A stretch of DNA of 32,886 nucleotides from Acidimicrobiales bacterium. GTDB lineage: Bacteria; Actinomycetota; Acidimicrobiia; Acidimicrobiales; DASWMK01. Of this stretch, positions 2,009 through 29,711 are shown piece after piece. Positions within the stretch are counted from its first letter, which is position 1. Every line of letters begins with the position of its first letter. The position numbers and the translations under genes were made by a program. Location: the NCBI GenBank assembly GCA_036399815.1, contig DASWMK010000218.1, positions 1-32,886 of the forward strand. Direction: 5' to 3'. The notes below the pieces were generated by a model that searched no databases, was not told the DNA's origin, and saw only the letters and a list, made by a program, of their open reading frames with translations.

Positions 2009-2016
2009 GGATGCAG
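2009..2016 (-). repeat. CTGCATCC element, copy 1
   Basis: This copy lies in the divergent gap between the minus-strand membrane protein (start 1972) and the plus-strand zinc-ribbon gene (start 2054). Its minus-strand 3' end is 36 bases from the ATG at 1972. It is one of five identical 8-mers confined to late-operon gaps. It may be a promoter or operator element; its function is inferred only from position. Confidence 0.5.
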
Positions 2017-2053
2017 GGACGGGCGGGACGTGGGAGAATGAACAGGACGGCTT

Positions 2054-2293
2054 GTGGTGAGCCGCACCCCGGCTACAAGGGAGGAGGGCGGGCCGCCTGT
2101 CGTGAACGTCCCGCCGGTGTGCCCGCACTGTCGACAGTACGCCAACCCCGGCGCGGAGCGGTGCTACTGGTGCGGTGGGAGCCTTCACGTTCCGACGCTG
2201 GCCGACGAGGTTCTGCGCGTCGCGCTCGTCCTCATCATTGCCGGGATGATCGTCGCGGTGCTCGTGGCCGTCGCCCTTCAGACCGAACGCTGA
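2054..2293 (+). CDS. Zinc-ribbon protein with C-terminal membrane anchor
   Basis: The product is 79 residues from GTG 2054; GTG 2057 is an equal alternative, and GTG 2102 would leave a shorter form. A CxxC-x10-CxxC knuckle (C23, C26, C37, C40; CPHCRQYANPG, RCYWCGGS) is followed by one hydrophobic helix at about 53-75 and a short basic end, giving a tail-anchored topology with the zinc ribbon probably cytoplasmic. It is read against the surrounding late operon, so it needs its own promoter, and a CTGCATCC element lies 37 bases upstream. Cargo genes oriented this way often act in host takeover or superinfection exclusion. No specific function is visible. Confidence 0.65.
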   Translation: MVSRTPATREEGGPPVVNVPPVCPHCRQYANPGAERCYWCGGSLHVPTLADEVLRVALVLIIAGMIVAVLVAVALQTER

Positions 2294-2361
2294 AGCCGGG
2301 CAAGGAGCGAGCTGATGCCGCACCACCCGCGACCGAGGCATCCCGCTACTCGAAACCGAGA

Positions 2362-2382
2362 CTCTAAACGAGAGGTTTAGAG
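2362..2382. repeat. Perfect AT-rich inverted repeat between convergent genes
   Basis: CTCTAAAC, loop GAGAG, GTTTAGAG: an uninterrupted 8-bp stem in the gap between the plus-strand gene ending at 2293 and the minus-strand gene ending at 2427. It is markedly less GC-rich than its surroundings. No T-run follows on either strand, so it is not a classic intrinsic terminator. It may be a bidirectional terminator of another type or a protein-binding site. Confidence 0.45.
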
Positions 2383-2426
2383 CTGGCCGGTCAGTACCAG
2401 TGGTTGCCGCGCATGAGCAGCCTCCC

Positions 2427-2816
2427 TTAGTCGCAGCCCGCCGGCAGGTCTGGGAGGGACACGTCCACCCCCACCGCCCTCGTGATCGACACCGCCACCT
2501 TCCGCAAGTCCTGCGCCAACGCGCAGTTGATCGCCAACACCGCCCGCCCCGTCCGCACCTCCCCGTTCTCGAAGCACTCGTGGAAGTCGTCGTCCTGCGA
2601 CGGGGTCGTGCACTCCACCAGCAGGTCACCGTTCGCCCGGTTCTGCTCGGCGATCTCCTCCAACCGGCCCAGCACACCGACCAGCGTCCACACCCCCACC
2701 GCGACCACGATGGCAAGCGCGACGATCACGGCGTCGAGGATGATGGCACGGCGACGGAAGAACCGGTTCTGTGCGTCGACAGCGGCGAACAGTTCGTCTT
2801 CGGGTACGGGGGTCAT
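2427..2816 (-). CDS. One-pass membrane protein of lysis region, 129 aa
   Basis: ATG 2816 overlaps the upstream stop as ATGA. Residues 1-23 are charged and end in FFRRR. Residues about 25-47 form one strong membrane helix, followed by a polar domain with four cysteines (C69, C81, C98, C128) that may form disulphides if outside the membrane. The basic N-terminus suggests N-in topology with the cysteine domain outside. The gene lies in a row of small membrane proteins downstream of the endolysin. Roles in holin regulation or envelope disruption are plausible; none is shown. Confidence 0.7.
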   Translation of the reverse strand: MTPVPEDELFAAVDAQNRFFRRRAIILDAVIVALAIVVAVGVWTLVGVLGRLEEIAEQNRANGDLLVECTTPSQDDDFHECFENGEVRTGRAVLAINCALAQDLRKVAVSITRAVGVDVSLPDLPAGCD

Positions 2817-3106
2817 GCGCCTCCTCTTGCGAGCCGCCGCCGCAGGTCGTCGTTGACCTCCCGAAGCTCGTTCAGTTCCTGTTGCAGCGCCTGGCAGTGG
2901 CGTTCGCAGGCGTCCGCCTTCTTCTCCGCAGCCTCGGCACGGTTCTTCGCCCGCTCCAACTCCTCGCGAAGGTCGGTCACGAGGTCGCGGGTCCACTGCC
3001 GTACCTCTGCTGCGGTGTCCTGCCGGGTGCCCCGCCGGTAGAGGAGCCACGCGGGAAGCGCGGCCACGATAACGGCGACCACCCCGCTGATGATCGCCGC
3101 TTCCAC
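2813..3106 (-). CDS. Membrane-anchored coiled-coil protein, 97 aa
   Basis: The GTG at 3106 is supported by GGAGG about five bases upstream. Residues about 4-22 are a membrane helix (AIISGVVAVIVAALP), then YRRG, then a long charged heptad-rich helix from about 34 to 93 rich in E, R, K, A and L. An N-terminal anchor plus cytoplasmic coiled coil is a common shape for accessory lysis proteins near actinophage endolysins. It overlaps the next gene by ATGA. It could be a holin-like or antiholin-like partner; this is inference from shape and place. Confidence 0.7.
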   Translation of the reverse strand: MEAAIISGVVAVIVAALPAWLLYRRGTRQDTAAEVRQWTRDLVTDLREELERAKNRAEAAEKKADACERHCQALQQELNELREVNDDLRRRLARGGA

Positions 3107-3121
3107 TTCACCTCCATCGGA

Positions 3122-3184: not shown

Positions 3185-3262
3185 TCTCCGGTTCCCTCCT
3201 CACCCGAGGGGATCGGGGTACAGGCCGGGGCGTCTGTTCACGCAGGCGTCCCGGCCGCCTCC

Positions 3263-3456
3263 TTACTGCGTGTGGCCTCGCCGGTGGAACAGGTAGAGGT
3301 AGTCGGCGAGCACGTCGACGGTCGACTTGCCGTGCTCGATTCCGGCCACGCGCACGACGCCCGCAGGATCGGGTCGTCCATCTCCGCTGCGCAGGCGTCG
3401 CAGTCCGGCCGCCGGCCGAAGCCGTACCAGCGCAGCACCTTCGTGGCCGTCGGCAT
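3263..3456 (-). CDS. Small gene needing a -1 frame change near base 3362
   Basis: ATG 3456 lies two bases after the endolysin stop. The first 32 codons have high GC3 and encode a CDAC-containing stretch ending MDDPILR. After CTGCGGGCG (about 3366-3358) the coding signature moves to the -1 frame, which continues with high GC3 (VRVAGIEHGKSTVDV onward) to TAA at 3265-3263, giving about 64 residues. The original frame runs on to 3238 but becomes serine/threonine-rich shadow sequence. A missing G, a real mutation or programmed slippage could explain this; alternatively, two overlapping small genes exist. No family is recognised. Confidence 0.55.
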
Positions 3457-3458
3457 GA

Positions 3459-4587: not shown

Positions 4588-4661
4588 CCCGTCGCCTCCT
4601 CGGGTCGGCCGCCCTGCCGGAACATGGCGCCGACACTCGCCGCCACCCGAAGATGCTGACC

Positions 4662-4669
4662 GGATGCAG
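4662..4669 (-). repeat. CTGCATCC element, copy 2
   Basis: It begins five bases after the TGA at 4677-4675 (TGAGCCTC then the motif). An ATG at 4625 lies exactly 36 bases downstream and opens a 25-codon frame (4548-4625) that overlaps the 69-aa gene out of frame; the annotated ATG at 4587 is 74 bases away. Confidence 0.5.
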
Positions 4670-5267: not shown

Positions 5268-5302
5268 GCGTGGAGCGTCGCTGTCGGCTGTCGAGGCGGG
5301 GA

Positions 5303-5310
5303 GGATGCAG
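5303..5310 (-). repeat. CTGCATCC element, copy 3
   Basis: It starts three bases after the TGA of the fibre-like gene (TGACCT then the motif) and ends 35 bases before the ATG at 5267, a gene without a Shine-Dalgarno sequence. Confidence 0.5.
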
Positions 5311-10851: not shown

Positions 10852-13800
10852 CGGGCGACCAGCCGGGCGGCGACAGCGCGGGCGGTCACCTCGGGGTCGA
10901 CGGCTTCCCACACTTGGATCGGGCGGGCCGCCTCCTTCACCTTCGCGGCCGTCTCCTCGGCGACCAGGACGGCCAGCCGGCGGAGCGTCGCCTCGTCGAC
11001 CGGGCTTCCCAGGTTCGGCGTCGGCCGGAGCGTCACCGGTTCGGGGGTGACGACCCGGGCTGAAACGTCGGCGGGGAGGATCACGCCCGGCTGGGCGAAC
11101 ATCACCGACTCCTGGCCGCCCGACCCGAGCCAGGCGGCTCCGCCCGACCCGAACAGGGCCAGCTCGGGGCCTTCCTCGCCGACCGTGTACGGGAACCCGG
11201 GTACGGCGGGGCCGCCGGTCGCGGCGGCGACCGAGTGCATGCGGGTGTACACGTCGATGTACCGGACGACGTTGCTCACCGAGTTCATGGAGCTTTGCGC
11301 CGACCCGGCAGCCGACGGGGCGTTCGTGGTGACCGTGATCGACCGGGTGACCCCGTCGACCCCGAAGATCGCTCCCTGCGCGGTGTTCGACCCGCTGATC
11401 GCGCCCGACGGGTCCGCGTCGACCGGGCGGGTCACGCCGAACACGGCGGAGATCACCGCCTGCGCCGCCGCCGCGCCCTGCTGGGCGCCGGACGGGTCGG
11501 CGTCGATGTCGGTCCCGTGGAAGAACGGCACGGAGTCGATCGCCTGCGCCGCCAGCCGGGCGGCGTCGGCGGCGGGTCCGGGGTCGCCGTCCAGTTCGGT
11601 CACATGAAGGAACGGCACCGCCTCCACGGCCGCCGACGCCAACGCGGCGGCTGCCTCAGCTTCCGCTGCGTCGGCGGACAGGGTCGACCGATGCTCGATG
11701 GGGATGGCGTTGATCGTCTCCCCGGCGAGCAGGGCGGCTTCGGTGGCTGAGGCGGCGTCGGCGGTCACGGTGGTGTGCCGCTCGGGGGGGATGCGGTCGG
11801 CGGCGTCGGCGGTGGTCGCCATGTCGCGGGCGGCCTGCTCGGCGCCCGGAGCCGAGACGGGGACGTCGAGGGCCGGGACGAGCGACAGGAGCCTGATCTG
11901 GTCGGCGAACGCCTTCACCTGATCGGCGGGGATACCGGCTGCCGCTCCGGTCGCCTCCAGGTCGGCGGCCAGGAACCCGAGTCCCGTGCGGATGTCCTCG
12001 ACGGGCACCCCGGCCTCGGCCATCGCCACCGCCCACGCCCCGGCGTCGTCGACCGCCGAGCGGAGTTCCTCGCGGACGCGGATCGCCTCCGTCGAGAATC
12101 CCGACAGGGACACGCCGGCGCCGTCGTTCGCGTCCGCCGCGGCGCGGGCGGCGTCCGCGACCCCGTTGAGGGTCGACTTGAAGTCGTCCAACGCCTCGTC
12201 GGAGGACACCCCGCCGATCAGCCCGTCGATCTGCCGTTTCAGTTCCGACACCGCCTCAGCGGCTCGCTCGGCTGGACCGGGAAGCCCCTCGAAGAAGTCG
12301 ACCACCTCGTCGCCGCCGGAGAACTCGTCGAGGCCGGCGAACGCGTCGCCCAACGCGCCGGCGAACCGCTCGACCGGCACGTTCCGGATCACACCGTCGA
12401 CCCGGCGGGTCGCCTCCTCGACCTCCCCGAGGCCCCCGGCGGCGATCTTCCCCTGCGACTCGAGCAGTTCCAGGGCGGCGCCGTACTCGCCGGTGCTGGT
12501 GTTCGCGTCGGACGCGGCGAGCGCGGCGTTCACCTCCTGCTGGGACAGGTCGCCGTTCGACACGGCGGCCCGCACCGCCGCCTCCGCCGTCTCCTCCATC
12601 GTCGACCGCAACTGGGCGAAGATGGTGTCGGCGACCTCACCGTCCACCCCGGCAGCCTCCAACCGGGTGTGCAGTTCGGCCAGGCCGACATTGCCGGCCT
12701 GCGCCATCCGTGCCAGCTCGTCGCCGGTCAACCCGGCCTGGGCGAACAGCTCGCCGAGGACCCGGCCGTTCTCGCTCACCGTGAACGCCTGATCCAACCA
12801 CGCCCCGGTCGCCGACCGCAGCGTCCCCTCCTGCGCCTGGTAGGCGGCGGTCAGGTCCTGCACGGACCGGGCGTGGGCGGCTTCCCGGGCGGCGGCCTCC
12901 GACTGGATGATCGTGTACGCCGTGAACGCCGCCGCGGCGGCGGCGACGGCGACGCTCATCGTCCCGGCGCCGACCGTGACGCCGCTCAGTTGGGGGATCA
13001 CCCGGCTGAGGCCGCCGAGGAGGCTGTTGACGCCGGAGCCGAGAAGGGTGGCGCCCCGGTGGGCGGTCAGGAACGCGACGCCGGCGGTCGTGAGGCCGGG
13101 CGGCAGCATCGACACCAGCCGCAGCAGAGTGGTGAGCACGTCGATCAGCGGCAGCCCCGAGTCGACCATCGCCTGGGCGAGGCTGACCGCCACCGGCACC
13201 CCGGAGCGGAGCAGGTCGATCGCCGGGGCGACGACCGGCTGGCCGATCTGCTCGAGCGCCTCCCCGAACGCGACGCTGAGACTGCGGACCTGCACCTGGG
13301 CGTTCTGGGCGCCTTCGGCGACGTTCGATCCGAGGCTGTCGCCGTACCGCTCCGACGCGATCGCCGCGCCAGCGGCGGCCCGGTCGAACACCGTCAGTTC
13401 AGCGGCGGTGTCCTTCCCGGTGTCGGCGAGGGCTCGGGATTCGATCTCGGCCGTGCTCAAGCTGATCCCGAAGTTCGCCGCCGACCGGTTACCGCGGGCG
13501 AGGGCGTTGACCATCTGGTCGGCGACGGCGCCCACGTCCCCGAGGGCGGGGTCCAACGCGACGGCGTTCGCGGCGAGAGCGAGAACCTGTTCGGCGGTGG
13601 CCGCCACCTCGGGGCCGCTGCGCTCGCTGGCCTCGCCGAGCTGGACGAGGCTGGACACGGACCGGCGGATGGCGTCGTCGCTGCTGCCGAGGCTGACCGC
13701 CAGGGTCGAGATGTCGGTGTTGAGGGTGCCGACGTTGATGTCGTCGACCTGGGCGGCGTACTCGCCAAGCGTGGCGTTGTACCGTTCCTGGGCGCCTTGG

Positions 13801-15437: not shown

Positions 15438-15460
15438 GGGTGCTCCTCCGTGTGGGACGG

Positions 15461-16329: not shown

Positions 16330-16333
16330 TGGA

Positions 16334-16339: not shown

Positions 16340-16345
16340 CCGAGG

Positions 16346-16567: not shown

Positions 16568-16571
16568 GGCG

Positions 16572-16877: not shown

Positions 16878-16889
16878 CGGGTGCTCCTC

Positions 16890-17654: not shown

Positions 17655-17658
17655 CCCG

Positions 17659-18333: not shown

Positions 18334-18343
18334 GTCGGGCCTC

Positions 18344-20220: not shown

Positions 20221-22031
20221 CAGGCGGCCTCACCGCCCTGGGCGCCGGACTGCGGGTCGCAGGCGAAGTCGATGGCGCCGATCCGGGCGCCGGAGGCGCA
20301 CAGGGTGGAGGTGCCGTCGATGCCGAGGACGCCGCGGAACAGGAGGCCTTCGAAGGTCTCCATGAACTGCCGGTACCGGTTGGTGCGGACCAGCTCGTCG
20401 TCCCGGTAGGCGTCGACCCGCAGCTCGCCGCCGTTCAGGAAGAACAGCGACCCCTCCGGGTACAGCAGCCACCGGACCGTCGCCGGGAACGACGGGAGGG
20501 CGCCGTCGGCGGTGGGGGCGGCGAGCACCTGGAGGTCCGGGGAGAAGGTGACGTTGACGCCGCGGGACTGGAGGTCGGCGACGAACTGCTGGCGGGCGTA
20601 GCGCATCTCGTCCCCGGTGGCCGGCAGCTGTCGGGACCGGTCGATGGACACCAGCCGGTCCGTCCAGTCGGGGAGGACCAGCCGCCACGCCTGGTCGCCG
20701 AGCCGGTGCGCCGAGCCGACGGTGGCGAGGGCGACGTCGACCGCGAACATCAGGTCGGGGAGGGCCGACACCTGCGCGCCGACCGTCTGGGCGAACACCC
20801 GGGGGTGGGCGCGGAACAGGTCGCGCAGCTTCTGCTCGGCGACTCGGGCGTGGACGACGGTCGCGAGCCGTTCGATGGCGGGCACCTTCTCCGGGTGGGC
20901 CCTGGTCTCGAACACGCCGAGGGTGATGCACGAGGTGGCCGCGTGGAGTTCGGCGTCCTCGGTGTCGCAGTCGACCTCGACGCAGGGCTTCCAGGTGGCC
21001 GGGTCGTCGGGGTCGACGGCCTCGTCCATCGCCGCCGTGTAGATGACCGCCGAGCCGGCGAGGTCGGCGACGGTCATCGGCTCGACGGCGGTCACCCGGC
21101 CGCGGGGGGCCTGCATGTCGACCATGGCGTCGCGGAACGGGCGGACGTCGGTGCCCCAGACGGGGACGTCGTAGATCGGCTGGGCGGGGGCGCAGCCGAA
21201 GCCGCCGGCGGCGGCGAGGGCGGTCGGGTCCGGTCCTGCCGCTGCGGCCTGGAGGGCGGCGATCCGTTCGGCGTTGACGACCGGGCTGTCCGTGAACCGC
21301 CGGTCCTCGGGGTACTCGATGACCGCCTCGCCGACGGTGCGCTGCCCGTCGCGGGCGCCCATCCGGTGGGCCATGTCGGCGGCGGCGGCGAACAGGTCGG
21401 CGGTGGTCGCCTGCCCGGTGCGGCCGGTGGCGGCGCCGACGGCGAGGCGGACCTCGGTCCGGCCCCGGCCGTGGGTGGCCGCGCCGGGGTCGGCGGTCGC
21501 GGCGGTGGGCCTGCGGCCGGTGGCGGCCTGCCGACGGGCGACGGCGGCGACCGTGGGCCGACGGCGGGGGGTCGGGGTCGCGGCGGCGGCGACCGGTTCG
21601 GGCGTGTCGGCCGTCGCGTCGTCCTCGCCGTTCGCCGCGTCGCCGTCCTCGCCCTCGTCGTCGCCCGTGTTGGCCTCGTCGCCCGCGTCGTCGGCCTCGT
21701 CGCCGGTCTCATCGTCGTCGGTGTCGCCGTTGATGACCCGAAGGGCGGCGTCCCTCGCCTCGGTGCGGATCGTCTGCGCCTCCCGCACCTCGGCGGCCAG
21801 GGTGGCGGCGTCCTGCAGGTCGGCGAGGGGGGTGGCCTCGTCGGCGGCGAGCGCCTGGATGCCGGCGAGCACCGAGTCGAGCGCGTCGGACGGCAGGTCG
21901 GCGAGCGCCTGACGGAACTCGGACCGCTCGTCGTCGGACAGCGGGTTGTCGGCGTCCCCGAGGCGCTGGGCGAGAGCGATCGTCGCCTCGTCGGCGCCGG
22001 CCTCGGTGAGCAGGCGGATCAGCTCGTCCAC
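20220..22031 (-). CDS. Major capsid protein with fused scaffold-like N-terminus
   Basis: GTG 22031 is chosen because CCGGAGAGAACCACC precedes it; 603 residues. Residues 1-95 are helical and charged like a scaffolding delta domain (DELIRLLTEAGADEATIALA). Residues about 101-145 form a very acidic Asp/Glu/Gly linker, followed by a Pro/Arg/Ala-rich stretch to about 185. The capsid core runs from about 230 to the end, with WKPCVEVDCD, a long helix (KVPAIERLATVVHARVAEQK) and a typical C-terminal FFLNGGELRVDAYRDDELVRTNRYRQFMETFEGLLFR block split by beta strands. Protease cleavage after the linker would free the core during maturation. It follows the protease in transcription order. Confidence 0.82.
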   Translation of the reverse strand: MDELIRLLTEAGADEATIALAQRLGDADNPLSDDERSEFRQALADLPSDALDSVLAGIQALAADEATPLADLQDAATLAAEVREAQTIRTEARDAALRVINGDTDDDETGDEADDAGDEANTGDDEGEDGDAANGEDDATADTPEPVAAAATPTPRRRPTVAAVARRQAATGRRPTAATADPGAATHGRGRTEVRLAVGAATGRTGQATTADLFAAAADMAHRMGARDGQRTVGEAVIEYPEDRRFTDSPVVNAERIAALQAAAAGPDPTALAAAGGFGCAPAQPIYDVPVWGTDVRPFRDAMVDMQAPRGRVTAVEPMTVADLAGSAVIYTAAMDEAVDPDDPATWKPCVEVDCDTEDAELHAATSCITLGVFETRAHPEKVPAIERLATVVHARVAEQKLRDLFRAHPRVFAQTVGAQVSALPDLMFAVDVALATVGSAHRLGDQAWRLVLPDWTDRLVSIDRSRQLPATGDEMRYARQQFVADLQSRGVNVTFSPDLQVLAAPTADGALPSFPATVRWLLYPEGSLFFLNGGELRVDAYRDDELVRTNRYRQFMETFEGLLFRGVLGIDGTSTLCASGARIGAIDFACDPQSGAQGGEAA

Positions 22032-22232
22032 GGTGGTTCTCTCCGGGTTCTCGTCGCGTGTCGGCGGGCGAGCGCTCGGGGACTGGGTCCGCACCGAGGC
22101 ACCGGGGCCGGGACGACTGGGTCGACCCTTGCCGGGCTCGTCGATCAGGATGAGCCGGCTGTTCGCGGCGGGTCCGGATGCAGCAGGATCAGGTCGACGT
22201 ATCCGGCCGGGACGCTCCGGCGTCTGATCAGG
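22032..22232. other. 201-base divergent intergenic region
   Basis: This is the largest gap in the window, between the capsid gene (minus, start 22031) and the lipoprotein gene (plus, start 22233). It holds one CTGCATCC element (22176-22183) and should contain the promoter of the plus-strand pair. No clear -10/-35 pair is seen. The minus-strand frame across it reads VDLILLHPDP by chance and lacks coding character. Confidence 0.5.
22176..22183 (-). repeat. CTGCATCC element, copy 4
   Basis: It is preceded by TGATCCTG on the minus strand, so TGA again lies five bases upstream although no gene now ends there. It lies 144 bases from the capsid GTG and 49 bases before the plus-strand GTG at 22233. 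Confidence 0.5.
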
Positions 22233-22466
22233 GTGGTGAGGACGACGGGGTGGAAGCAGCGCGTGGTCGGAGCGGTCGTCGCAGCGGTCGTCGTCGTCGG
22301 CTGCTCAGGCAGCGGCTCGGAAGTGTCCCGGGACCGGTGCATGGCCTACTTCGAGGACCGGGTCGGGCATGACGTGGCCGACGACGGGTTCTGGGAGACG
22401 TTGCAGGACTGCGCCCGGGAGGGGCTTCTCCCGGAGGGGCAGAACGACCCGGGGTTCTACGAGTAG
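22233..22466 (+). CDS. Small predicted lipoprotein, inverted cargo gene
   Basis: The product is 77 residues from GTG 22233 (GTG 22236 equally possible). Basic KQR is followed by a hydrophobic stretch (VVGAVVAAVVVVGC) ending in a lipobox-like VVGC with C24 as the lipidated residue, then SGSGS. The exported part has two cysteines (C36, C60) and an acidic helical character (FEDRVGHDVADDGFWETLQD). It would be anchored on the outside of the host membrane. It is transcribed opposite to the virion genes. Phage lipoproteins in other systems, such as Ltp of TP-J34, block superinfection at the DNA injection step; a similar role here is inference. Confidence 0.68.
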   Translation: MVRTTGWKQRVVGAVVAAVVVVGCSGSGSEVSRDRCMAYFEDRVGHDVADDGFWETLQDCAREGLLPEGQNDPGFYE

Positions 22467-22673
22467 GTGCGGCGCCGGTTCTGGTGGTGGCTGGCGAGCC
22501 GGGACAAGGACGTCTGGTACGCCGCCCGTCTGCTCACCGAGGCCGGGCGGCGGGTGACGGGGTGGGCTGAGCGGCGGGCTAGGCGGCTGCCGGCATCGCA
22601 CGCAGAGCACGGATCGCGGCGGGGTCGCCCTGAGCGCGTTCGTAGGCGCGGCACCGGTCCCGGTTGCGAGTGA
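22467..22673 (+). CDS. Possible short basic protein after the lipoprotein
   Basis: GTG 22467 directly follows the lipoprotein TAG. The first 40 codons have strong GC3 and encode an aromatic start (RRRFWWWLASRDKDVWY) and an amphipathic helix (AARLLTEAGRRVTGWAERRARR). From about 22580 the frame overlaps the 3' end of the convergent glycosyltransferase and codon bias fades, so the C-terminal third may be non-selected. It may be a membrane-associated partner of the lipoprotein. Function unknown. Confidence 0.42.
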   Translation: MRRRFWWWLASRDKDVWYAARLLTEAGRRVTGWAERRARRLPASHAEHGSRRGRPERVRRRGTGPGCE

Positions 22674-23289
22674 AGGTGGGGTCGTCGGGTCGACGGTTGG
22701 TGGGGTGCCACAGGTGGACGAGGTCGCCGGCCACCCGGCTGTCGGGGGCGACGAGGGTGCGGAGCGCGCAGACGAAGGCGACATCCTCAAAGCCCCATCC
22801 GCGGAACGTGGGGTCCATCCCGCCGACCCGGTCGAACGCCGACCGGTGGAGGACGAGCACCCCGCCGAGGGAGCCGGTGGAGCGGGCCATCGGCTGGTCG
22901 AGGTCGCCGTCGCGGGTCGCCGGCCAGACCGGGGCGCCGTCGACCAGCTGTTCGGTGGCACGCCGGTTGAGGGGCATGTACCGGACGTAGGGGAGCACCC
23001 ACCCCTGCCTGTGCGCCGCCTGGGTGATCGCGACGGTCGCCTGGTTGTAGTCGATCGTCAGGTCGGAGTCGGCGATGATCCGCACGTCGCCGGTGGCCTT
23101 CTCGGCGGCGGCGTTCACCGAGGCGGCACGGGAGAAGGGTCGGCCGCCGTCGTCGCCGAGGATCACCTCCATCCGGTAGCTGTTCGCGAGGAGCCGCTGC
23201 CAGCGGCGCCAGCACCACACCCACAGCCGCTCCCGCCACTCGGACTCGGGCCGGTACGGGACGAGCACCGACACCGTCGGCTGGATCAT
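22579..23289 (-). CDS. Family 2-type (GT-A) glycosyltransferase
   Basis: The product is 236 residues; ATG 23289 overlaps the upstream TGA. The N-terminus VSVLVPYRPE is the nucleotide-binding strand. SVNAAAEKATGDVRIIADSDLT contains the DxD-type metal/nucleotide-sugar site (D74-D76). GGVLVLHRSAFDRVGGMDPTFRGWGFED is the acceptor/catalytic region typical of galactosyltransferase-like GT2 enzymes (ED at 168-169), and LVHLWHP gives a late histidine. It has no membrane helix, so it is probably a soluble enzyme. Lying between the protease and capsid genes, it probably modifies a head protein or works with the family 4 enzyme. Confidence 0.86.
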   Translation of the reverse strand: MIQPTVSVLVPYRPESEWRERLWVWCWRRWQRLLANSYRMEVILGDDGGRPFSRAASVNAAAEKATGDVRIIADSDLTIDYNQATVAITQAAHRQGWVLPYVRYMPLNRRATEQLVDGAPVWPATRDGDLDQPMARSTGSLGGVLVLHRSAFDRVGGMDPTFRGWGFEDVAFVCALRTLVAPDSRVAGDLVHLWHPTNRRPDDPTFTRNRDRCRAYERAQGDPAAIRALRAMPAAA

Positions 23290-23525
23290 CCGACCGCCGC
23301 CGCTACAAGGTCGAGCAGCGCGGCCGCCGCACCATCTGGGGTATCAGCGACCGCGGACCGTTCGCCGCAGGATGCGCGCCACTGGAGCACACCGTCGGTC
23401 TCGGAGACGGTGAACGACACGGCGTTGCCGTCGCAGAGGGCTTCCACCGCGCGGACCATCGTCAGGAGGTTCCCGCCGGGCATCGCCGTCACCGACCCGG
23501 TGAAGGGAGCGAGGGAACCATCCAC
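23286..23525 (-). CDS. Small hypothetical protein, 79 aa
   Basis: The start is GTG 23525, without a clear ribosome site; the internal ATG at residue 15 is an alternative. The product is alpha-beta: a helix NLLTMVRAVEALCDG, strands AVSFTVSETDGVLQWRASCG, and a C-terminal helix GAAAALLDLVAAAVG. The end overlaps the family 2 glycosyltransferase start by ATGA. The hydrophobic C-terminal helix is short for a membrane anchor. No function is recognised. Confidence 0.6.
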   Translation of the reverse strand: MDGSLAPFTGSVTAMPGGNLLTMVRAVEALCDGNAVSFTVSETDGVLQWRASCGERSAVADTPDGAAAALLDLVAAAVG

Positions 23526-23538
23526 GAGTCGGCGGTGC

Positions 23539-23721
23539 TCACGACAGCGCGTCCTCTAGGACCGAACGGTTCCTGTCGGCGCACTCGCTGTGCCAGACGT
23601 AGCCGCCGCTCTCCACATGCTCGCCGCGGTCGCTCCACACGTCGTCGCCGCACCACTCGCAGATGCCGACATGCAGACCAGCGGCTATGGCCGCGGCGCG
23701 GGTCATGTCGTCGCTGCTCAC
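23539..23721 (-). CDS. Small zinc-binding-type protein, 60 aa
   Basis: GTG 23721 is chosen because it overlaps the upstream stop as GTGA; ATG 23706 would give 55 residues. It carries CEWCGDDVWSD and WHSEC, giving CxxC plus H-x2-C, a plausible single zinc site. Otherwise it is polar and acidic. Such short zinc-knuckle proteins are common accessory genes in actinophages. No specific function. Confidence 0.6.
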   Translation of the reverse strand: MSSDDMTRAAAIAAGLHVGICEWCGDDVWSDRGEHVESGGYVWHSECADRNRSVLEDALS

Positions 23722-23954
23722 GACACGGCCACCACGACGAGAATCGCACCCACCGCTGCGACGAGGATCACGGCGTCGGCGTCCTCCGCTGGCCATTCCA
23801 CGTCCGGCGGAGGGCCGAGGAACATGTACCGAGCCGCCGAACCGGGCCGCACGCGATGCAGCACGCACTCGACCAGCCACGCCCACACCGGCTTCTCCCC
23901 GACAGCCCCGTAGCGGCGGCCCACCCACCTGCAGAACCGCTCTGCGCTACCCAC
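23718..23954 (-). CDS. Tail-anchored small membrane protein, 78 aa
   Basis: GTG 23954 overlaps the protease stop by eight bases. Residues 1-40 are basic with aromatic residues (ERFCRWVGRRYGAVG, VWAWLVECVLHRVRPG). A short acidic linker (DVEWPAEDAD) precedes one hydrophobic helix at the very C-terminus (AVILVAAVGAILVVVAVS). This is a second membrane-anchor type gene outside the lysis region. It may target the cytoplasmic membrane; its role is unknown. Confidence 0.6.
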   Translation of the reverse strand: MGSAERFCRWVGRRYGAVGEKPVWAWLVECVLHRVRPGSAARYMFLGPPPDVEWPAEDADAVILVAAVGAILVVVAVS

Positions 23955-25494
23955 GGCGCAGCCGCTTCGCGACGGCCGACGGCTCCCGGCGGACCGGGGC
24001 GACCTGGGACCGGGCGTAGGCGAGAGCTTCCGGCTCGAGATGGCGGGTGCGTCGCTCGAGCGTGGCGAGCCGGGCCGACAGGTTCTGCTCCATCCCGTGC
24101 ATCGCGTCGACCAGCATCATCACCGAGGAGCCGTCCAGCTCCAGCGTCGCCCGCAGGTCGGCCCGCTGCCGCTTCTCGCATTCGGCGCAGCGGCGCACCA
24201 TGCCGGCGGCGACGAGCGCGACCGTCTCCCCGGCGTCGGTCGTCGCCGCCATCCGCACCGACGCGGGCATCGGCAGGCCGGAGGCGGTGATCGTCTCCCG
24301 GCGGATCGGGAAGCCGCCGACGTTGACGGCGAGCAGGCCGACCAGCTCGCCGCCCCGCCAGTCTCCCGACAAGCAGAGCCCGCGGAGCACCCGCACCTGC
24401 GCCGCGGTCACGTCGGGCAGAAGCACGCCGGCCACCCAGGGTCCGTGGCGGCCGTTCGACACTCGGACATCGGCCCAGCCGAGGCCGGCGTGGGCGTAGT
24501 GGTCGCGCGCTTCGGACGGGCTGACGCCACGGGCGGTGGACGCGTGGTCGCAGCCGACCACCAGACGGCCGGTGTTTACCTCGGTCCCGTCGGCGCAGCG
24601 GGTCAGCCCCGTGTGGAACGACGCGTACGACTCGGGGCGGGGCGGGGACACGCAGGCGCCGGGGAAGCCGACATGGCAGGCGCCCCAGCAGGCGGCGTGG
24701 CCGTACACCCGGCCGTCGTCGGTGATGGTCAGCGGCACCGCCTGCCGGCCCTGGCCCTGGTCGACGTAGCGGTCGTCGCCGTCGTCCGGCTCCGTCATGT
24801 CGAACCAGGCTCGTGCCGGCAACGGCGGTGCGGCCGACCCGGCGGCCACCCGCGCCTCGTCGTCACCCGCCGTCTCGCCGCCCTCCAACGTGACGTAGGC
24901 GCGGGCGAAGGCGGGCATCGGCTCGACCGTCATGCCGATGATCTCGTAGGCGAGGAACCGCCAGCGGGTGCACCACTCGACCCCGTCCTCGTCCTCCTCC
25001 GTCTCCGCGCATTCGACTTCGACGGCGCCGGGGTCGACGGACACGCCGAACCGGCCAGCCCCGGCGATGATCGACCTCGCCTCCCGGCCGGCGTCGATCG
25101 CGAACCAGCGGCCCCTGCCCTGCGGCGCCGCCCGCTCTCCCAGCCCCGTCACCTCGGTGAAGAACCCGGCGAGGCGGGCCTCCCAGTGTGCCGGCAGGTT
25201 CTGGGTCTGGACGAACACCGGCATGGTGCTCACCGCCGGGTCGCGGGCCGTCCACGTGCAGTCGGTGAAGTCGCGGCCGTCGCCGGTGTCCTCCGAGAAG
25301 GCGAGCTCGGAGTACCACACGTCGGGCAGAAGTTCCGACTCGTTGACCCCGGCGGCGGCGGTGACGGTGTCGCCTAGCGCGGAGGCGACGAGGGCGACCG
25401 CCTGCTGCCGGGTGGGCACTTCGGTGGTGGTCCCGTCGCGGGTGTCGACCACCTGGACCGGGCCGTCGGCGCGCTGCTGGCGGATGGTGAACAT
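23947..25494 (-). CDS. Capsid maturation protease
   Basis: The product is 515 residues; ATG 25494 overlaps the portal stop (ATGA). The protease core is in the second half: RVYGHAACWGACHVGFPGAC, a Phe-His-Thr-Gly segment, GRLVVGCDHAS with probable catalytic H317, ARDHYAHAGLGWADVRV, GPWVAGVLLP, and CLSGDWRGGELVGLLAVNVGGFPI with probable nucleophile S376. This follows the actinophage pattern '..HA...YD.tg..vA.v...........lSGDWR....L...a...v..pGFP'. The N-terminal 210 residues are an extra domain and the C-terminal 80 form a charged helix that may bind scaffold. It cleaves scaffold and capsid domains in the prohead. Confidence 0.82.
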   Translation of the reverse strand: MFTIRQQRADGPVQVVDTRDGTTTEVPTRQQAVALVASALGDTVTAAAGVNESELLPDVWYSELAFSEDTGDGRDFTDCTWTARDPAVSTMPVFVQTQNLPAHWEARLAGFFTEVTGLGERAAPQGRGRWFAIDAGREARSIIAGAGRFGVSVDPGAVEVECAETEEDEDGVEWCTRWRFLAYEIIGMTVEPMPAFARAYVTLEGGETAGDDEARVAAGSAAPPLPARAWFDMTEPDDGDDRYVDQGQGRQAVPLTITDDGRVYGHAACWGACHVGFPGACVSPPRPESYASFHTGLTRCADGTEVNTGRLVVGCDHASTARGVSPSEARDHYAHAGLGWADVRVSNGRHGPWVAGVLLPDVTAAQVRVLRGLCLSGDWRGGELVGLLAVNVGGFPIRRETITASGLPMPASVRMAATTDAGETVALVAAGMVRRCAECEKRQRADLRATLELDGSSVMMLVDAMHGMEQNLSARLATLERRTRHLEPEALAYARSQVAPVRREPSAVAKRLRRG

Positions 25495-27848
25495 CAGGCG
25501 GCCTCCTCCCCGGCGTGCCGGGTGTCGGGAAGCTGGTCGGCGGTGGGAGCTTCCACCAGGGTGGGGACCAGCGAACAGGTGCAGCCGGCGTGGTCGCCCG
25601 GCATGTAGTACGCGAGCCGCAGCCAGTCGCCCTCCGCACCCACACGCAGGACAGGGGCGGTGAAGTCGGCGAACTCGGTGCCGTCGAGATCGACATGCGG
25701 TTGGAACGGGCGGACTGCGCCGCCGTGCGTCCACGCCCACCCGCCGACCACGACGCCGGCTTCGGCGAGCACATCCGTGGTGGTCGGCCCGGTGGCGACC
25801 CCGAGCACCGGTGCCCCGTCGCCAGTGACCACGCCTCCCGCCGGGGTGTCAGCCAGATCGGTGTGGCCGCCCGCCGCGGCGAGCGCTCGCCGGACGACGC
25901 CGGCTTGGACGGCCATCGACGGGTCGTGCTCCCCGTTCGGGGGTTCGTCGTCGGCGGGGTCGAACAGCCGCCGCGACGCCAACGCGAGGAGGGCGGCGAG
26001 GAGGAGGCCCCAGCCGCGCTCCCGGTCGGTGTCGTGTCGGGCAGCCCACGCCTCGTCGTCGGCGTCCACGAACGGCGACACCGCCTGCCTCGCTCGCCGC
26101 TGAACTGCCGACACCCACGTGTCGTACTTGTCGGCCAGCCCGTCGAACACGCCATCCAGCGGGTCGCCGGCTTCGGCTACGACCGGATGGTCCCGTCCGA
26201 GCGCCCGGCCCACGTCCTCGGGGCGGACGTTGCGGAGCTGGGCGCGCAGGGCGGTGTCGCCGTTCGCCTTCGACCGCAGCCTCGCCCCCGCGACGCGGAG
26301 GGCGTTGGTGAGGGCTGCGTCGCAGGCGACGTGCAGCCGGTCGAACAACGACCGGTCCATGTCGGCCAGCCGGCGGGACAAGCTGCTCAGGTCGCGGGTG
26401 CGTGCGGCGACCAGCGCGGGCATCATCCGAGACGACGCTGCGATCACCCGGGACTGCTCCCCGCCGGGCAGCGGATTCTCGGCGCTCACGCCGCCGTCCG
26501 TGCCGGTGCTGCGGGTCGCGATGGCGAAGCGGGCGGCGATCTCCTCGTCGGTGGGGGCGTCGTCGTCGGACGCGCCGATCGCCCGCCGCACCGCCTCGAC
26601 ACCGACAGCGGGGACGGGAAGCTTGTTGGCGTCCATGAAGTCCTTCGCCCGGTTCGGGTGCGACACGATCGCCGACGGGTCGTCCCACACCACCAGCCGG
26701 TCCGCCACGTCCGCCGCGAACCCAGCCTCCAGCGCGGCGGGCCGGAGCCACGCGGAGGTCAGCGCCTCGGTTTGGAGGCGGACGCCGGGCTGCAAGTGGA
26801 ACTGGTAGTCGGTTTCCGGGACCTGCCAGGCGGTCCAATGGTTCAGGTCGGCGAGGCCCTGCACGATCTCCGGGGGGAAGTCGCAGCCCTGGATGATGCC
26901 GGCGACCAGCCCCTTCATCCGCTCCTGCGTCTCCTTGTCGATCGGCCGGTCGAAGGTGACGTGCTTCGGTTCGCCCTCGTCCTTGCCGCCGCCGCCGATC
27001 AGCACGATCGGCAGGGCGCCGACCGCGGAGCCGGGGTCGCCGATCGGGGTGACCATCGCGTCGATGAACTCTTCGACCGCCTCGTCGAGCGTGCCCTTCG
27101 ACTGGTCGGCCTTCGGCAGCCGCCAGGAGCCGGGGATCAGCAGGACGCCGTTCGCGGCCATCCTCGAGCGGGCCTTCCCCCGGTTGCCTGCGGCGAGCCA
27201 CAGGAGTTCGTCGCAGTCGTCGAGCGTCCCCCACCAGACGGCGTCGGCGGCACGATGGTGGCGAGGATGGCGGCGCCACACGCGGATGAACACGTCGTCG
27301 GCGGTGACCGGGATGCGCTCGGTGCCGGCAAGGACGACCGGGCCCTCCGAGCGCCACTGCACCTCGTCGACCGACAGGACCTCCCAGGTGGCGGCCGGGT
27401 CGCCTTCGGCGGCGGCGCGGCCCCACCAGTAGCATTCGGCGGCCACGGTGAGGTTCAGGTCCGACACTCGTTGGAGTTCGCTCTGCCCGCCGTCCTTCGC
27501 TTTCCAGTCGGCGAGGACGTCGGCGGCGAACCCGACGAGGTCGGCGGGCGGCTTGTCGGCCTGGTCGATGTCGTCGGAGTCGAGCGCGTCCTGCAGTGGG
27601 ATCGGCGGGGCGTCCGGGTCGACGGTCCAGGCGGGGAACAGGCGGACCATGCCGACGGCCGACGCGCGACGGTTGTACGCGTACTTGAGGAAGCCGACCT
27701 TGTCGTAGACGTTCCACGCTCTGGTTTGGACGGGGGTCGGCCGGCGGCGGGAGCGGCGGGCGGTGCCGTCGCCGAGGTCGAGTTTCGCTGCGGACGCGAC
27801 GATCGTGCCCGGCTGGCGGAGGCTGCGGAACCGGTCGAGGATCGCCAT
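25494..27848 (-). CDS. Portal protein with C-terminal MuF-like domain
   Basis: The product is 784 residues, longer than most portals (about 450-550). ATG 27848 lies one base after the upstream TGA. The portal part (to about 500) has VYDKVGFLKYAYNRRASAVG, AECYWWGRAA, VLSVDEVQW, IRVWRRHPRH, KGLVAGIIQGCDFPPEIVQGL and the aromatic NHWTAWQVPE. The remaining about 280 residues are helical and end in GDHAGCTCSLVP, resembling the H-x2-C-x-C end of SPP1 gp7 / Mu gpF minor head proteins. It forms the dodecameric DNA gate of the head. No separate MuF gene is seen, consistent with fusion. Confidence 0.85.
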   Translation of the reverse strand: MAILDRFRSLRQPGTIVASAAKLDLGDGTARRSRRRPTPVQTRAWNVYDKVGFLKYAYNRRASAVGMVRLFPAWTVDPDAPPIPLQDALDSDDIDQADKPPADLVGFAADVLADWKAKDGGQSELQRVSDLNLTVAAECYWWGRAAAEGDPAATWEVLSVDEVQWRSEGPVVLAGTERIPVTADDVFIRVWRRHPRHHRAADAVWWGTLDDCDELLWLAAGNRGKARSRMAANGVLLIPGSWRLPKADQSKGTLDEAVEEFIDAMVTPIGDPGSAVGALPIVLIGGGGKDEGEPKHVTFDRPIDKETQERMKGLVAGIIQGCDFPPEIVQGLADLNHWTAWQVPETDYQFHLQPGVRLQTEALTSAWLRPAALEAGFAADVADRLVVWDDPSAIVSHPNRAKDFMDANKLPVPAVGVEAVRRAIGASDDDAPTDEEIAARFAIATRSTGTDGGVSAENPLPGGEQSRVIAASSRMMPALVAARTRDLSSLSRRLADMDRSLFDRLHVACDAALTNALRVAGARLRSKANGDTALRAQLRNVRPEDVGRALGRDHPVVAEAGDPLDGVFDGLADKYDTWVSAVQRRARQAVSPFVDADDEAWAARHDTDRERGWGLLLAALLALASRRLFDPADDEPPNGEHDPSMAVQAGVVRRALAAAGGHTDLADTPAGGVVTGDGAPVLGVATGPTTTDVLAEAGVVVGGWAWTHGGAVRPFQPHVDLDGTEFADFTAPVLRVGAEGDWLRLAYYMPGDHAGCTCSLVPTLVEAPTADQLPDTRHAGEEAA

Positions 27849-27849
27849 G

Positions 27850-28086
27850 TCAGGCGGCCCGCTCGACGCTGATGTTGCGGTAGTCGACCATGTCGCCGGA
27901 CCGGAAGTAGGCCGTCCGGCAGTAGTTGGCCCACGCCTCTGCCCCTCGCCGTGTCCAGCAGCGACGCAGGACTATGCGGCTCACCTCGTCCCAGCATCGC
28001 TGGCCGTTGTGCTCGCGTACCCCCGGTGGCGTCGGTGGCCGGTCGCATACCAGCACGGTCCGGCGCAGGACGACCTCCCACGCCAT
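27850..28086 (-). CDS. Small basic protein between WhiB and portal, 78 aa
   Basis: ATG 28086 follows the WhiB stop by one base (TGA C ATG), and the same arrangement joins it to the portal. The protein is arginine- and tryptophan-rich with three of its cysteines in RCWDEV, RRCWTRR and NYCRT, and a C-terminal FRSGDMVDYRNISVERAA. The cysteines could bind a metal. It is not recognised. Tight packing suggests it is translated with its neighbours. Confidence 0.6.
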   Translation of the reverse strand: MAWEVVLRRTVLVCDRPPTPPGVREHNGQRCWDEVSRIVLRRCWTRRGAEAWANYCRTAYFRSGDMVDYRNISVERAA

Positions 28087-28087
28087 G

Positions 28088-28543
28088 TCAGCCGGCCTCG
28101 GGTCTGGCGATGTGGCCGTCGGCGCCGACCTGGCCATCGGCGAACCCGCCGGAGGCGTGCGCCCACCTGCTGATTCCGCCGTCGGAGCGGGTCAGCGGCT
28201 CCCCGCAGCCAGCGCAACGTCGGCTGGTGACCACCGGGACTGGCTGGTCGACCAGCGGAGGGCACCCACGCTTGTACCGGGTATACAGGCCATGTGGCAC
28301 GCCGGGTCGGCCGGCGACGCCGATCCTCGCCCGCTCCCGCTCGCTCATGCCGCCCCACACGCCATGCTGCTCGTTGTGTGCCACGGCGAAGTCGCCGCAC
28401 TGTCGGCGGACCGTGCACTCCGCGCACACCCGCTTGGCGACGATCACGCTCGCATCGTCGGACGGGAACATGTCCACGGTCCGGCCCTTGCATGCCGCCT
28501 GCGCCATCCACGCCGTCTCGGCGCGAACGCTCGCCGCGATCAC
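28088..28543 (-). CDS. WhiB-like iron-sulphur transcription factor
   Basis: GTG 28543 overlaps the upstream stop (GTGA); 151 residues. Four cysteines in the WhiB order, C18, C40, C43 and C49 (QAACKG, VCAECTVRRQC), would hold a [4Fe-4S] cluster. GVWGGMSERERARI (61-74) is the family's glycine-tryptophan turn, followed by a basic segment. Canonical Wbl proteins stop near 90-100 residues. This one continues with a second cysteine set (C94, C110, C113 in SRRCAGCGEPL) that may form a zinc ribbon. Wbl proteins act with sigma factors to control transcription; mycobacteriophage TM4 WhiB affects septation and superinfection. It lies between terminase and portal. Confidence 0.88.
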   Translation of the reverse strand: MIAASVRAETAWMAQAACKGRTVDMFPSDDASVIVAKRVCAECTVRRQCGDFAVAHNEQHGVWGGMSERERARIGVAGRPGVPHGLYTRYKRGCPPLVDQPVPVVTSRRCAGCGEPLTRSDGGISRWAHASGGFADGQVGADGHIARPEAG

Positions 28544-28848
28544 CGCTGCTCCCACGCGGCGACCAGCCCCGCCACCGCGGACGCCGCCAGCACCGCCGCA
28601 CCCGACCGCCACACCGCCACCGGCAGCACCCACCACGACCCGACCGCCAGCCCAGCGACCCACATCGACGCGCACCACGGGCAGGTGATCAGGTCGCCGA
28701 CCTTCACCCGCAGCGTCGCCGCCCGGCCGTCACGTTCGGACCAGGCGACGACCCGGTCGCGGGTGCCCTCCCAGATCGTGTCCTCGGTGACCAGGCGGGT
28801 CGCCCGGTACACGGCGAGCGCGCCGAGGAGAGCGTCGAGCCAGGTCAC
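28540..28848 (-). CDS. DUF1360 family membrane protein, 102 aa
   Basis: GTG 28848 overlaps the upstream micro-gene stop (GTGA). The N-terminal part ALAVYRATRLVTEDTIWEGTRDRVV and the ITCPWCASMWVAGLAVG segment with its CPWC motif are the DUF1360 signature. Hydrophobic helices lie at about 58-78 and 82-98. The family occurs in phages and bacteria and its function is not established. It is the largest member of a run of three membrane genes, so the three may act together. Confidence 0.75.
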   Translation of the reverse strand: MTWLDALLGALAVYRATRLVTEDTIWEGTRDRVVAWSERDGRAATLRVKVGDLITCPWCASMWVAGLAVGSWWVLPVAVWRSGAAVLAASAVAGLVAAWEQR

Positions 28849-28958
28849 GTCCGGTCCCGGAGGATCAGCGCCACACGGGCGGCGACCACGACGAGGCCAG
28901 CGGCGGCTAGAGCGGCGGCGACGGGGATGATGGCCCGCAGCCCACAGCGTTCGGTCAC
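28845..28958 (-). CDS. 37-residue membrane peptide
   Basis: GTG 28958 overlaps the upstream stop (GTGA) and its TGA overlaps the DUF1360 GTG (GTGA), so it fills the gap exactly. The sequence is a short polar start (TERCG), one hydrophobic helix (IIPVAAALAAAGLVVVAARVALI) and a charged end (RDRT). Third codon positions are mostly G/C. Its size and coupling argue for a real micro-gene; the function is unknown. Confidence 0.58.
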   Translation of the reverse strand: MTERCGLRAIIPVAAALAAAGLVVVAARVALILRDRT

Positions 28959-29077
28959 CGGACCAGCAGGACGAGCGTGTTGGCGGCCAGCAGCAGGACG
29001 ATCACCAGCCACACGCCGACGACCGACCGGCTGGGGCGCTCGTCGGCGCGCCGGATGCGGACCCGCTCAGCCGGCAT
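28955..29077 (-). CDS. 40-residue single-pass membrane protein
   Basis: It runs from ATG 29077 to a TGA that overlaps the next GTG (GTGA). The basic, soluble N-terminus (MPAERVRIRRADERPSR) is followed by a helix VVGVWLVIVLLLAANTLVLLV and a final R, a tail-anchored form. It stands first of three consecutive membrane genes. No family is recognised. Confidence 0.6.
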   Translation of the reverse strand: MPAERVRIRRADERPSRSVVGVWLVIVLLLAANTLVLLVR

Positions 29078-29129
29078 CGTCGGGCCGACGAATCGGGGGT
29101 GCCCACTTCCCCGCGAACCGGCCGATCAT
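29067..29129 (-). CDS. Possible 20-residue micro-ORF
   Basis: ATG 29129 overlaps the upstream stop as ATGA. The frame has 16 of 20 third positions G/C and a basic peptide starting MIGRFAGKWAPP. Its stop overlaps the next gene's start region by eleven bases. It may serve mainly to carry ribosomes from the 77-aa gene to the 40-aa gene. Tentative. Confidence 0.33.
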   Translation of the reverse strand: MIGRFAGKWAPPIRRPDDAG

Positions 29130-29359
29130 CGTCGCCCGATCTGCGGCGCCTCATCCGTCTCTTGCAGAACCGTCAGCGTGCGACGGACTTCTTGCAGCCG
29201 AGCTGCGACTTCGGTGGCGAGGGGCGAGTACATGACCCGCTCGGCCAGGTGCAGGGCGGCGTTCGACTCGCTCTGTCGGGACAGGTGCCGGTCCACCTGC
29301 GAGAGCGTCGCTTCGAGCTTCTGCAACTCGCGGATCAGGTCGTTCCCGTGCATCGTCAC
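29126..29359 (-). CDS. Helical hypothetical protein, 77 aa
   Basis: GTG 29359 overlaps the upstream stop (GTGA); the ATG two codons later is an alternative. Two long amphipathic helices (DLIRELQKLEATLSQVDRHL, and LATEVAARLQEVRRTLTVLQ) suggest a coiled-coil dimer. It has no known domain. It lies in the accessory block after terminase, where a head-assembly or regulatory partner is possible. Confidence 0.65.
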   Translation of the reverse strand: MTMHGNDLIRELQKLEATLSQVDRHLSRQSESNAALHLAERVMYSPLATEVAARLQEVRRTLTVLQETDEAPQIGRR

Positions 29360-29667
29360 GTCCGCACCGCCTCGGGCGGGGTGAACCGCTGCACCGCCTT
29401 GTCCACCTGGCAGCCGCACGACACCCGAAGCCGGGTCGCCGCCCACACCCCGTCGTCCGTCACCACACTCAGCTGGTTGCCCTGCTGCGTCCACGACGCC
29501 CCCGGCAGGTCACGGACCAGCACCACACCGGGCGCCACCGACGGCAGCCCCGGATGGCGGCTCGCCTTCCCGAAGAAGCGGACACCGCCGTCGTCGGTGA
29601 CAACACGGACCCGGTCGAGACGGGAGCCGTCCGGGGCGACCACCCTGCACGGGTAGAGGTCGGGCAT
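29356..29667 (-). CDS. Beta-rich hypothetical protein, 103 aa
   Basis: ATG 29667 has no Shine-Dalgarno sequence; a CTGCATCC element ends 36 bases upstream. The protein is mostly short strands (DLYPCRVVAPDG, RVRVVTDDGGVRFFG, QLSVVTDDGVWAATRLRVSCGCQ) with VTDDG twice, suggesting a small barrel made of two similar halves. It has three cysteines, two in CGC. It directly follows the large terminase gene. Function unknown. Confidence 0.65.
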   Translation of the reverse strand: MPDLYPCRVVAPDGSRLDRVRVVTDDGGVRFFGKASRHPGLPSVAPGVVLVRDLPGASWTQQGNQLSVVTDDGVWAATRLRVSCGCQVDKAVQRFTPPEAVRT

Positions 29668-29703
29668 CCGACAAGAGATCCCACGGCCGGCTGCCGGACG
29701 GAC

Positions 29704-29711
29704 GGATGCAG
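29704..29711 (-). repeat. CTGCATCC element, copy 5
   Basis: It begins four bases after the terminase TGA (TGACCTT then the motif) and ends 36 bases before the ATG at 29667. The 48-base gap holds nothing else apart from a weak CCGG-CAG-CCGG repeat. Confidence 0.5.

What the first reader, a model, noticed from the sequence alone, without database searches (positions are those of the whole stretch)
2009..29711. A repeated CTGCATCC element marks the gaps of the late operon
Five exact copies lie on the minus strand: 2009-2016, 4662-4669, 5303-5310, 22176-22183 and 29704-29711. All five are in non-coding gaps, although such gaps make up only a few percent of the operon. Chance predicts well under one copy per strand for this 8-mer at this GC content, by my rough estimate. 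Four copies have TGA three to five bases upstream (TGACCT, TGACCTT, TGAGCCTC, TGATCCTG), giving an extended TGAnCCTnCTGCATCCG. In four gaps an ATG follows after 35 or 36 bases (1972, 5267, 29667, and 4625 as a small overlapping frame). The genes at 5267 and 29667 lack a Shine-Dalgarno sequence. Possible meanings: a promoter box for a phage sigma factor or WhiB, an operator, an RNA-level start signal, or a module-boundary sequence used in recombination.
Basis: partly seen in the sequence, partly recalled or inferred. Interest (0 to 1): 0.82.

Follow-up and report, generated by a model that had tools for sequence, protein, structure and literature searches.

The report
Phage late promoters with shared box
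The repeated CTGCATCC words are the upstream half of a family of phage promoters that switch on separate modules of virus-building genes, mostly starting the message at or next to the start codon, and the same layout with changed words recurs in other phages, probably read by a phage activator such as WhiB.

Summary
CTGCATCC lies five times on the late strand, always in gaps (4% of the window). Resampled gaps never shared an 8-mer five times (0 of 2000). A sixth copy sits inside a gene on the other strand.

The element is best explained as the upstream box of late promoters. A -10-like hexamer (nAnnnT) lies 23 nt after the box, and a start codon 6-7 nt further on, so many messages would be leaderless or nearly so. 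The window alone shows this weakly (3 of 5 hexamers). Two other virus contigs show it strongly. G664 has the same CTGCATCC 8 times on one strand and 0 on the other, with 8/8 hexamers at N22/23. G001 has GAATCC 9 to 0, with 7/9 hexamers. A prophage (G224) has two CTCCG sites of the same form. G664 and G001 carry promoters at the same genes with different boxes, which points to a trans-acting reader of changing specificity.

Box position (-36 to -43) and gene content favour a phage activator at sigma region 4. WhiB is the only shared named candidate, but it is unproven. No transcript data exist.

The parts
29704..29711 (-). Box 1, CTGCATCC, in the 48-nt gap after the terminase large subunit gene
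   Evidence: Exact match; gap
29675..29680 (-). -10-like hexamer GATCTC, 23 nt after box 1 and 7 nt before ATG 29667 (weak: no T in the last place)
22176..22183 (-). Box 2, CTGCATCC, upstream of the major capsid gene (22031-20220) and behind a small + strand gene 22233-22466
22147..22152 (-). -10-like hexamer CATCCT, 23 nt after box 2; no start codon within 8 nt, so a leader of about 115 nt is implied
5303..5310 (-). Box 3, CTGCATCC, in the 46-nt gap before gene 5267-4839
5274..5279 (-). -10-like hexamer GACGCT, 23 nt after box 3 and 6 nt before ATG 5267
4662..4669 (-). Box 4, CTGCATCC, before gene 4587-4378 and the endolysin cassette
4633..4638 (-). -10-like hexamer GAGTGT, 23 nt after box 4 and 7 nt before ATG 4625 (short frame only)
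2009..2016 (-). Box 5, CTGCATCC, before the holin-like membrane protein gene 1972-1508; a + strand zinc-ribbon gene 2102-2293 diverges
1980..1985 (-). -10-like hexamer TACCCA, 23 nt after box 5 and 7 nt before ATG 1972 (weak: A in the last place)
28088..28543 (-). WhiB-like gene, candidate activator
   Evidence: Pfam Whib 1.3e-18; four conserved cysteines and GVWGG
32120..32127 (+). Sixth CTGCATCC, other strand, inside gene 31839-32159; judged a chance copy

Best explanation
CTGCATCC is the upstream recognition box of a family of phage late promoters. The layout is box, 22-23 nt without any -35 hexamer, a host sigma-A-like -10 hexamer (nAnnnT, commonest forms nACCCT and nACCGT), 6-8 nt, then the start codon. 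Transcription would begin at or within a few bases of the start codon, giving leaderless or nearly leaderless late mRNAs; the capsid promoter has a longer leader. The box would then lie at about -43 to -36, just upstream of where a -35 hexamer would be. Shown by sequence: the boxes, their spacing and strand bias, and their recurrence in other phages. Inferred: that transcription starts there, and that a trans-acting, phage-specific protein reads the box. Inferred more weakly (about 40%): that this protein is the phage WhiB-like factor docked on region 4 of the host's main sigma factor. Separate late modules (the run after the terminase, capsid, tail end, lysis) would thus each have a promoter, switched on together.
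For: Gap placement and strand bias in the window. G001: GAATCC 9 times on the late strand and 0 on the other, all in gaps, 7 with nAnnnT at N23, 7 with a start codon at 34-37 nt (P 9e-10 and 7e-6). G664: the same CTGCATCC 8 to 0, confined to the late region, 8/8 with nAnnnT at N22/23 (P 2e-10 without the selecting site), 6/8 with a start codon at 34-37 nt. G224 prophage: two sites in the same register. Over 26 sites the hexamer falls at offset 23 (17) or 22 (4), at most 2 at any other offset. Window, G001 and G224 all have a site in the gap after the terminase; G001 and G664 have sites at homologous portal, connector and endolysin genes with different boxes. The host genome does not use the layout. 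WhiB genes in window, G224 and G664; no sigma factor matched among the early genes scanned in G224 and G664. WhiB7 binds sigma A region 4 and DNA just upstream of the -35 (PMC3905903).
Against: No transcript data. In the window only 3 of 5 hexamers fit nAnnnT, and 2 of 5 sites (22176, 4662) are not followed at 35-36 nt by a convincing gene start. G224 has only two sites, aligned after the fact, and two further ACCTCCGCA copies inside genes. One G664 box (25875) is inside the end of a gene and one G001 box (1763) lacks a -10 and a nearby start. Most other terminase relatives lack the layout. WhiB genes are common in actinophages, and the G001 contig contains no recognised WhiB.
Confidence: 0.82

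Rival explanations
1. Same promoters, but the box is read by another phage DNA-binding activator (for example a small XRE- or MerR-type protein or an unrecognised family), not WhiB.
For: XRE-type HTH proteins occur in G664 and G224 and a MerR-like one in G224; most early proteins have no known domain; several WhiB paralogues in G664 make a one-to-one match unclear.
Against: The XRE proteins look like repressors; none of these HTH families is seen in the window; WhiB is the only recognised regulator found in window, G224 and G664.
Confidence: 0.42
2. The box is the -35 element of an alternative sigma factor (phage-encoded or the ECF-like factor at window 2-787).
For: A short asymmetric box is typical of -35 elements; an ECF-like sigma gene lies at the window's left end.
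Against: A 22-23 nt spacer is longer than the usual 16-19 nt; the -10 looks like that of the main sigma factor; no sigma factor matched among the early genes scanned in G664 and G224; the window's sigma gene has host paralogues at 44-47%, so it is probably host-type, yet the host lacks such promoters.
Confidence: 0.1
3. The boxes are repressor or roadblock sites like the stoperators of Cluster A mycobacteriophages.
For: One orientation, in gaps, several per genome; stoperators are asymmetric sites of a monomeric repressor (PMC9283540).
Against: Constant spacing to a -10-like hexamer and start codons; in G664 the sites are confined to the late region.
Confidence: 0.05
4. The box works in RNA (processing, translation start or mRNA stability).
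For: It lies just after stop codons and before genes without a Shine-Dalgarno.
Against: No RNA structure beyond shuffled sequence (z -1.2 to +1.5); the second conserved block is a -10-like hexamer; the box word changes between phages while that block stays.
Confidence: 0.02

Closest known systems
WhiB7-activated sigma-A promoters of mycobacteria (PMC3905903)
   Same: [quoted passage not shown] an activator bound to sigma region 4.
   Different: The WhiB7 motif is AT-rich and a -35 hexamer is present; here the box is mixed (CTGCATCC, GAATCCG, CTCCG), no -35 is visible, and the genes are phage late genes. WhiB involvement is untested.
T4 middle promoters (MotA box, sigma appropriation; from general knowledge, review PMC2988021 listed)
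   Same: A phage activator box takes the place of the -35 at many phage promoters that keep the host -10.
   Different: The MotA box lies nearer the -10 (centred near -30); here it ends 22-23 nt before it. No MotA or AsiA relative was sought or found.
Actinobacterial leaderless promoters (TAnnnT about 7 nt before the start codon; general knowledge)
   Same: A -10 hexamer 6-8 nt before ATG or GTG, no Shine-Dalgarno. A plain example lies in the window: TACGAT before GTG 16346 on the + strand.
   Different: An added upstream box at fixed distance, and a weaker first base of the -10.
Stoperators of Cluster A mycobacteriophages (PMC6550527, PMC9283540, listed)
   Same: Short asymmetric words repeated in gaps in one orientation relative to transcription.
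   Different: Here the spacing to a -10 and a start codon is fixed and sites are limited to late genes.
Start-associated sequences of Cluster K mycobacteriophages (from memory)
   Same: A repeated word at a set place before phage start codons.
   Different: Those contain the ribosome-binding site next to the start; this box is 35 nt away and has no such sequence.

Membership tests
Phage late promoters read by a dedicated factor | Same word, same strand, before several late modules | tested here: met
   Window 5:1 with the odd copy inside a gene; G001 9:0; G664 8:0
Phage late promoters read by a dedicated factor | Constant spacing between the word and a -10 hexamer | tested here: met
   21 of 26 sites at offset 22/23, at most 2 at any other; in the window alone 3 of 5
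Phage late promoters read by a dedicated factor | Transcripts start at the predicted points, late in infection | not testable with these tools
   No RNA data
[quoted passage not shown]
   Box at about -43 to -36 if transcription starts at the start codon
WhiB-dependent sigma-A promoters | A -35 hexamer recognised by sigma A | tested here: not met
   No consensus between box and -10
WhiB-dependent sigma-A promoters | WhiB gene present in each phage with the layout | tested here: inconclusive
   Window, G224 and G664 have one; the G001 contig shows none but seems to lack its early region
WhiB-dependent sigma-A promoters | Binding or activation by WhiB | not testable with these tools
   Needs an experiment
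Stoperators (Cluster A) | Sites not tied to a promoter | tested here: not met
   Fixed spacing to a -10 and a start codon
Alternative-sigma (ECF) promoters | About 16-19 nt between the two elements | tested here: not met
   22-23 nt
Leaderless promoters | -10 hexamer 6-8 nt before the start codon, no Shine-Dalgarno | tested here: met
   Start codon at 34-37 nt after the box in 4/5 window, 6/8 G664 and 7/9 G001 sites; in the window one of the four is only a short frame

The most novel reading that the evidence does not exclude
Actinophage WhiB proteins are late-gene activators: bound to host sigma A region 4 they read a 6-8 nt box just upstream of a missing -35 and drive leaderless late mRNAs. 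Their box specificity changes between phages (CTGCATCC, GAATCCG, CTCCGCA) while promoter positions stay, so whole regulons switch words together.
Probability: 0.33. Interest if true: 0.8.

Novelty: new variant of a known kind. Interest (0 to 1): 0.62.

Why it matters
It defines, from sequence alone, a late-promoter class in phages of (inferred) actinobacteria, and gives exact sites and spacings to test. It offers a concrete candidate role for phage WhiB proteins: in a survey of WhiB in actinobacteriophages (PMC8612146) a search for 'promoter', 'late gene' and 'sigma' found none of these words. The coordinated change of box words at fixed positions is a natural case of regulon rewiring.

Tried and rejected
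A near search of the phage collection with window DNA found nothing. Among terminase relatives (L002-L080) CTGCATCC itself is not conserved; other repeated gap words, in L020, L041, L053, L059, L068 and L077, did not show this layout. Collection scans with loose promoter patterns mostly return chance hits, one per contig. A stricter pattern gave 31 stretches in all of IMG/VR, of which only G664 holds two, so no further close member was found there. Portal searches for close relatives of G001 and G664 returned only themselves. The first genome-contig scan (capsid) gave nothing; the second (terminase) gave five relatives without the layout. Portal relatives in the host's order (G642, G458, G559, G405, G259) lack it. 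Cultured phages phiAsp2, ZL12 and TurkishDelight lack it, though TurkishDelight has another late-gap element. The host genome does not use it. RNA folding of the sites gave nothing. Abundance of the 8-mer alone was rejected as evidence. A literature search for WhiB with phage and 'late promoter' found no paper in the held library.

Full report
OBSERVATION. CTGCATCC occurs at the five stated minus-strand places and once more on the + strand inside a gene. As a word it is only moderately over-represented (5 against 0.51 on the late strand, rank 84 among 8-mers). What stands out is the placement. With gene calls made by hand and checked with a small codon-usage gene caller, gaps make up 4.1% of the window, and CTGCATCC is the commonest 8-mer in them. 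No 8-mer reaches five gaps in 2000 Markov resamplings; random coding pieces reach five in about 8% of draws through repeated codon pairs. The window is contig C218 of a 4.16-Mb MAG; CTGCATCCG occurs 24 times in the rest of that MAG.

CONTEXT. The contig is a tailed phage or prophage: terminase large subunit 31263-29716, portal, capsid 22031-20220, tape measure, tail proteins, endolysin 4268-3459, and a WhiB gene 28543-28088. IMG/VR holds the same phage as two contigs of metagenome 3300034402. The TGA before the box is the stop codon of the previous gene at 29716 and 5314, and probably at 4675; boxes begin only a few bases after it.

ANATOMY. Twenty-three bases after each box lies GATCTC, CATCCT, GACGCT, GAGTGT or TACCCA. 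A is in the second place in 5 of 5 (base frequency 0.14), and nAnnnT fits in 3 of 5 (P 4e-4). In four cases an ATG follows 6-7 nt later. On its own this would be suggestive only.

REPLICATION 1. An unsupervised search for repeated gap words in terminase relatives picked out L022. Its full record G001 (31.7 kb) has GAATCC nine times on the late strand and never on the other, always in gaps. Seven sites have nAnnnT exactly 23 nt later (GATGCT, TACCGT, CACCGT, TACGTT, TACCGT, GACCGT, GACGAT), followed after 6 or 8 nt by ATG or GTG. P is 9e-10 for the hexamer and 7e-6 for the start codon. The layout was noticed in this record, so these P values are descriptive; G664 below is the cleaner test.

REPLICATION 2. 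A pattern scan brought in L191. Its full record G664 (47.8 kb) has the same CTGCATCC as the window eight times on the late strand and none on the other, all between 16.7 and 37 kb. All eight have nAnnnT at N22 or N23 (P 2e-10 without the selecting site), and six have a start codon at 34-37 nt. G664 and G001 are homologous through the structural genes (portal 36%, connector 47%). They carry promoters at corresponding genes (portal, connector, the gene upstream of the capsid, endolysin), one using GAATCC and the other CTGCATCC. The sites stay and the word changes everywhere at once, as expected if one trans-acting protein of changing specificity reads them.

REPLICATION 3. A prophage in a MAG of the host's order (G224, terminase 47-48%) has two sites ACCTCCGCA with TACCGT or TATGGT in the same register and a start codon 8 nt on. 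The first opens the gene after the terminase, as in the window and G001. This one was aligned after the fact and rests on two sites.

CONTROLS. Over 26 sites the -10-like hexamer falls at offset 23 (17 sites) or 22 (4), with at most 2 at any other offset from 10 to 39. Equal 6-mers at equal distance from three or more called starts are rare in other phage loci and absent among 219 stretches brought in by pattern scans. The reversed-pattern control in G001 is zero. The host genome has almost no such promoters. No -35 consensus is visible between box and -10.

MECHANISM. A box at about -43 to -36, no -35, and a main-sigma-like -10 is the geometry of an activator sitting at sigma region 4. [quoted passage not shown] WhiB3 touches G-C pairs at the same junction (PMC10245118). 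WhiB genes occur in the window, in G224 (one) and in G664 (four), and no sigma factor matched among the early genes scanned in G224 and G664. That makes WhiB the best named candidate. But WhiB genes are common in actinophages, and the G001 contig, which seems to lack its early region, shows none. The host is an unnamed MAG; an actinobacterial host is inferred from WhiB.

KNOWN KINDS. The arrangement works like WhiB7-dependent promoters and, more loosely, like the MotA-box middle promoters of T4, where an activator box takes over from the -35. It is not filed as a member of either: WhiB7 promoters have a -35, and the MotA box lies closer to the -10. Stoperators share the gap placement and single orientation but not the fixed spacing to a promoter and start codon.

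LIMITS. Nothing here shows transcription. The window's own hexamers are poor at two sites. The capsid promoter (22176) needs a leader of about 115 nt, and ATG 4625 may be only a by-product of the start-point sequence. Gene calls are computational.

Noticed in passing
L365 (Streptomyces phage TurkishDelight NC_073473.1), 12938-30551: A 13-nt element CTGGTTnTGGGCC, 9 copies, all on the + strand and none in L398 (40001-90000), stands before capsid, major tail, chaperone, tape measure, minor tail and tailspike genes. TAnnnT hexamers lie upstream of several copies, so it may be at the 5' end of late mRNAs. The annotated tailspike start (30557) falls inside the element.
   Followed up: partly
L020 6292-8600: Four copies of TAGACAATCTATCGGAT, all one orientation, before minus-strand genes of another terminase relative: probably an operator or promoter set of early genes.
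   Followed up: no
L366 (Actinoplanes phage phiAsp2): TGTGAAGTGTCAA repeated in gaps on both strands, reminiscent of mycobacteriophage stoperators.
   Followed up: no
window 22233-22466 +, 16346-16567 +, 2102-2293 +: Three small + strand genes inside the minus-strand late operon (a lipoprotein-like, an unknown and a zinc-ribbon membrane protein). The middle one has a clear leaderless promoter, TACGAT 6 nt before GTG.
   Followed up: partly
window 2-787 + and 797-1198 +: An ECF-like sigma gene with a repeat-like N-terminus, and a DUF7736 gene. The host MAG has two sigma paralogues at 44-47%, so this end may be host DNA next to a prophage. IMG/VR contig 3300034402_000017 runs 323 bp further left.
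   Followed up: partly
window 2362-2382 -: Perfect inverted repeat CTCTAAAC-CTCTC-GTTTAGAG in a gap: a possible operator or terminator.
   Followed up: no
window 3262-3456 -: Small gene after the endolysin whose likely C-terminus (VRVAGIEHGKSTVDVLADYLYLFHRRGHTQ) is in another frame from its start: two overlapping genes or a frameshift.
   Followed up: no
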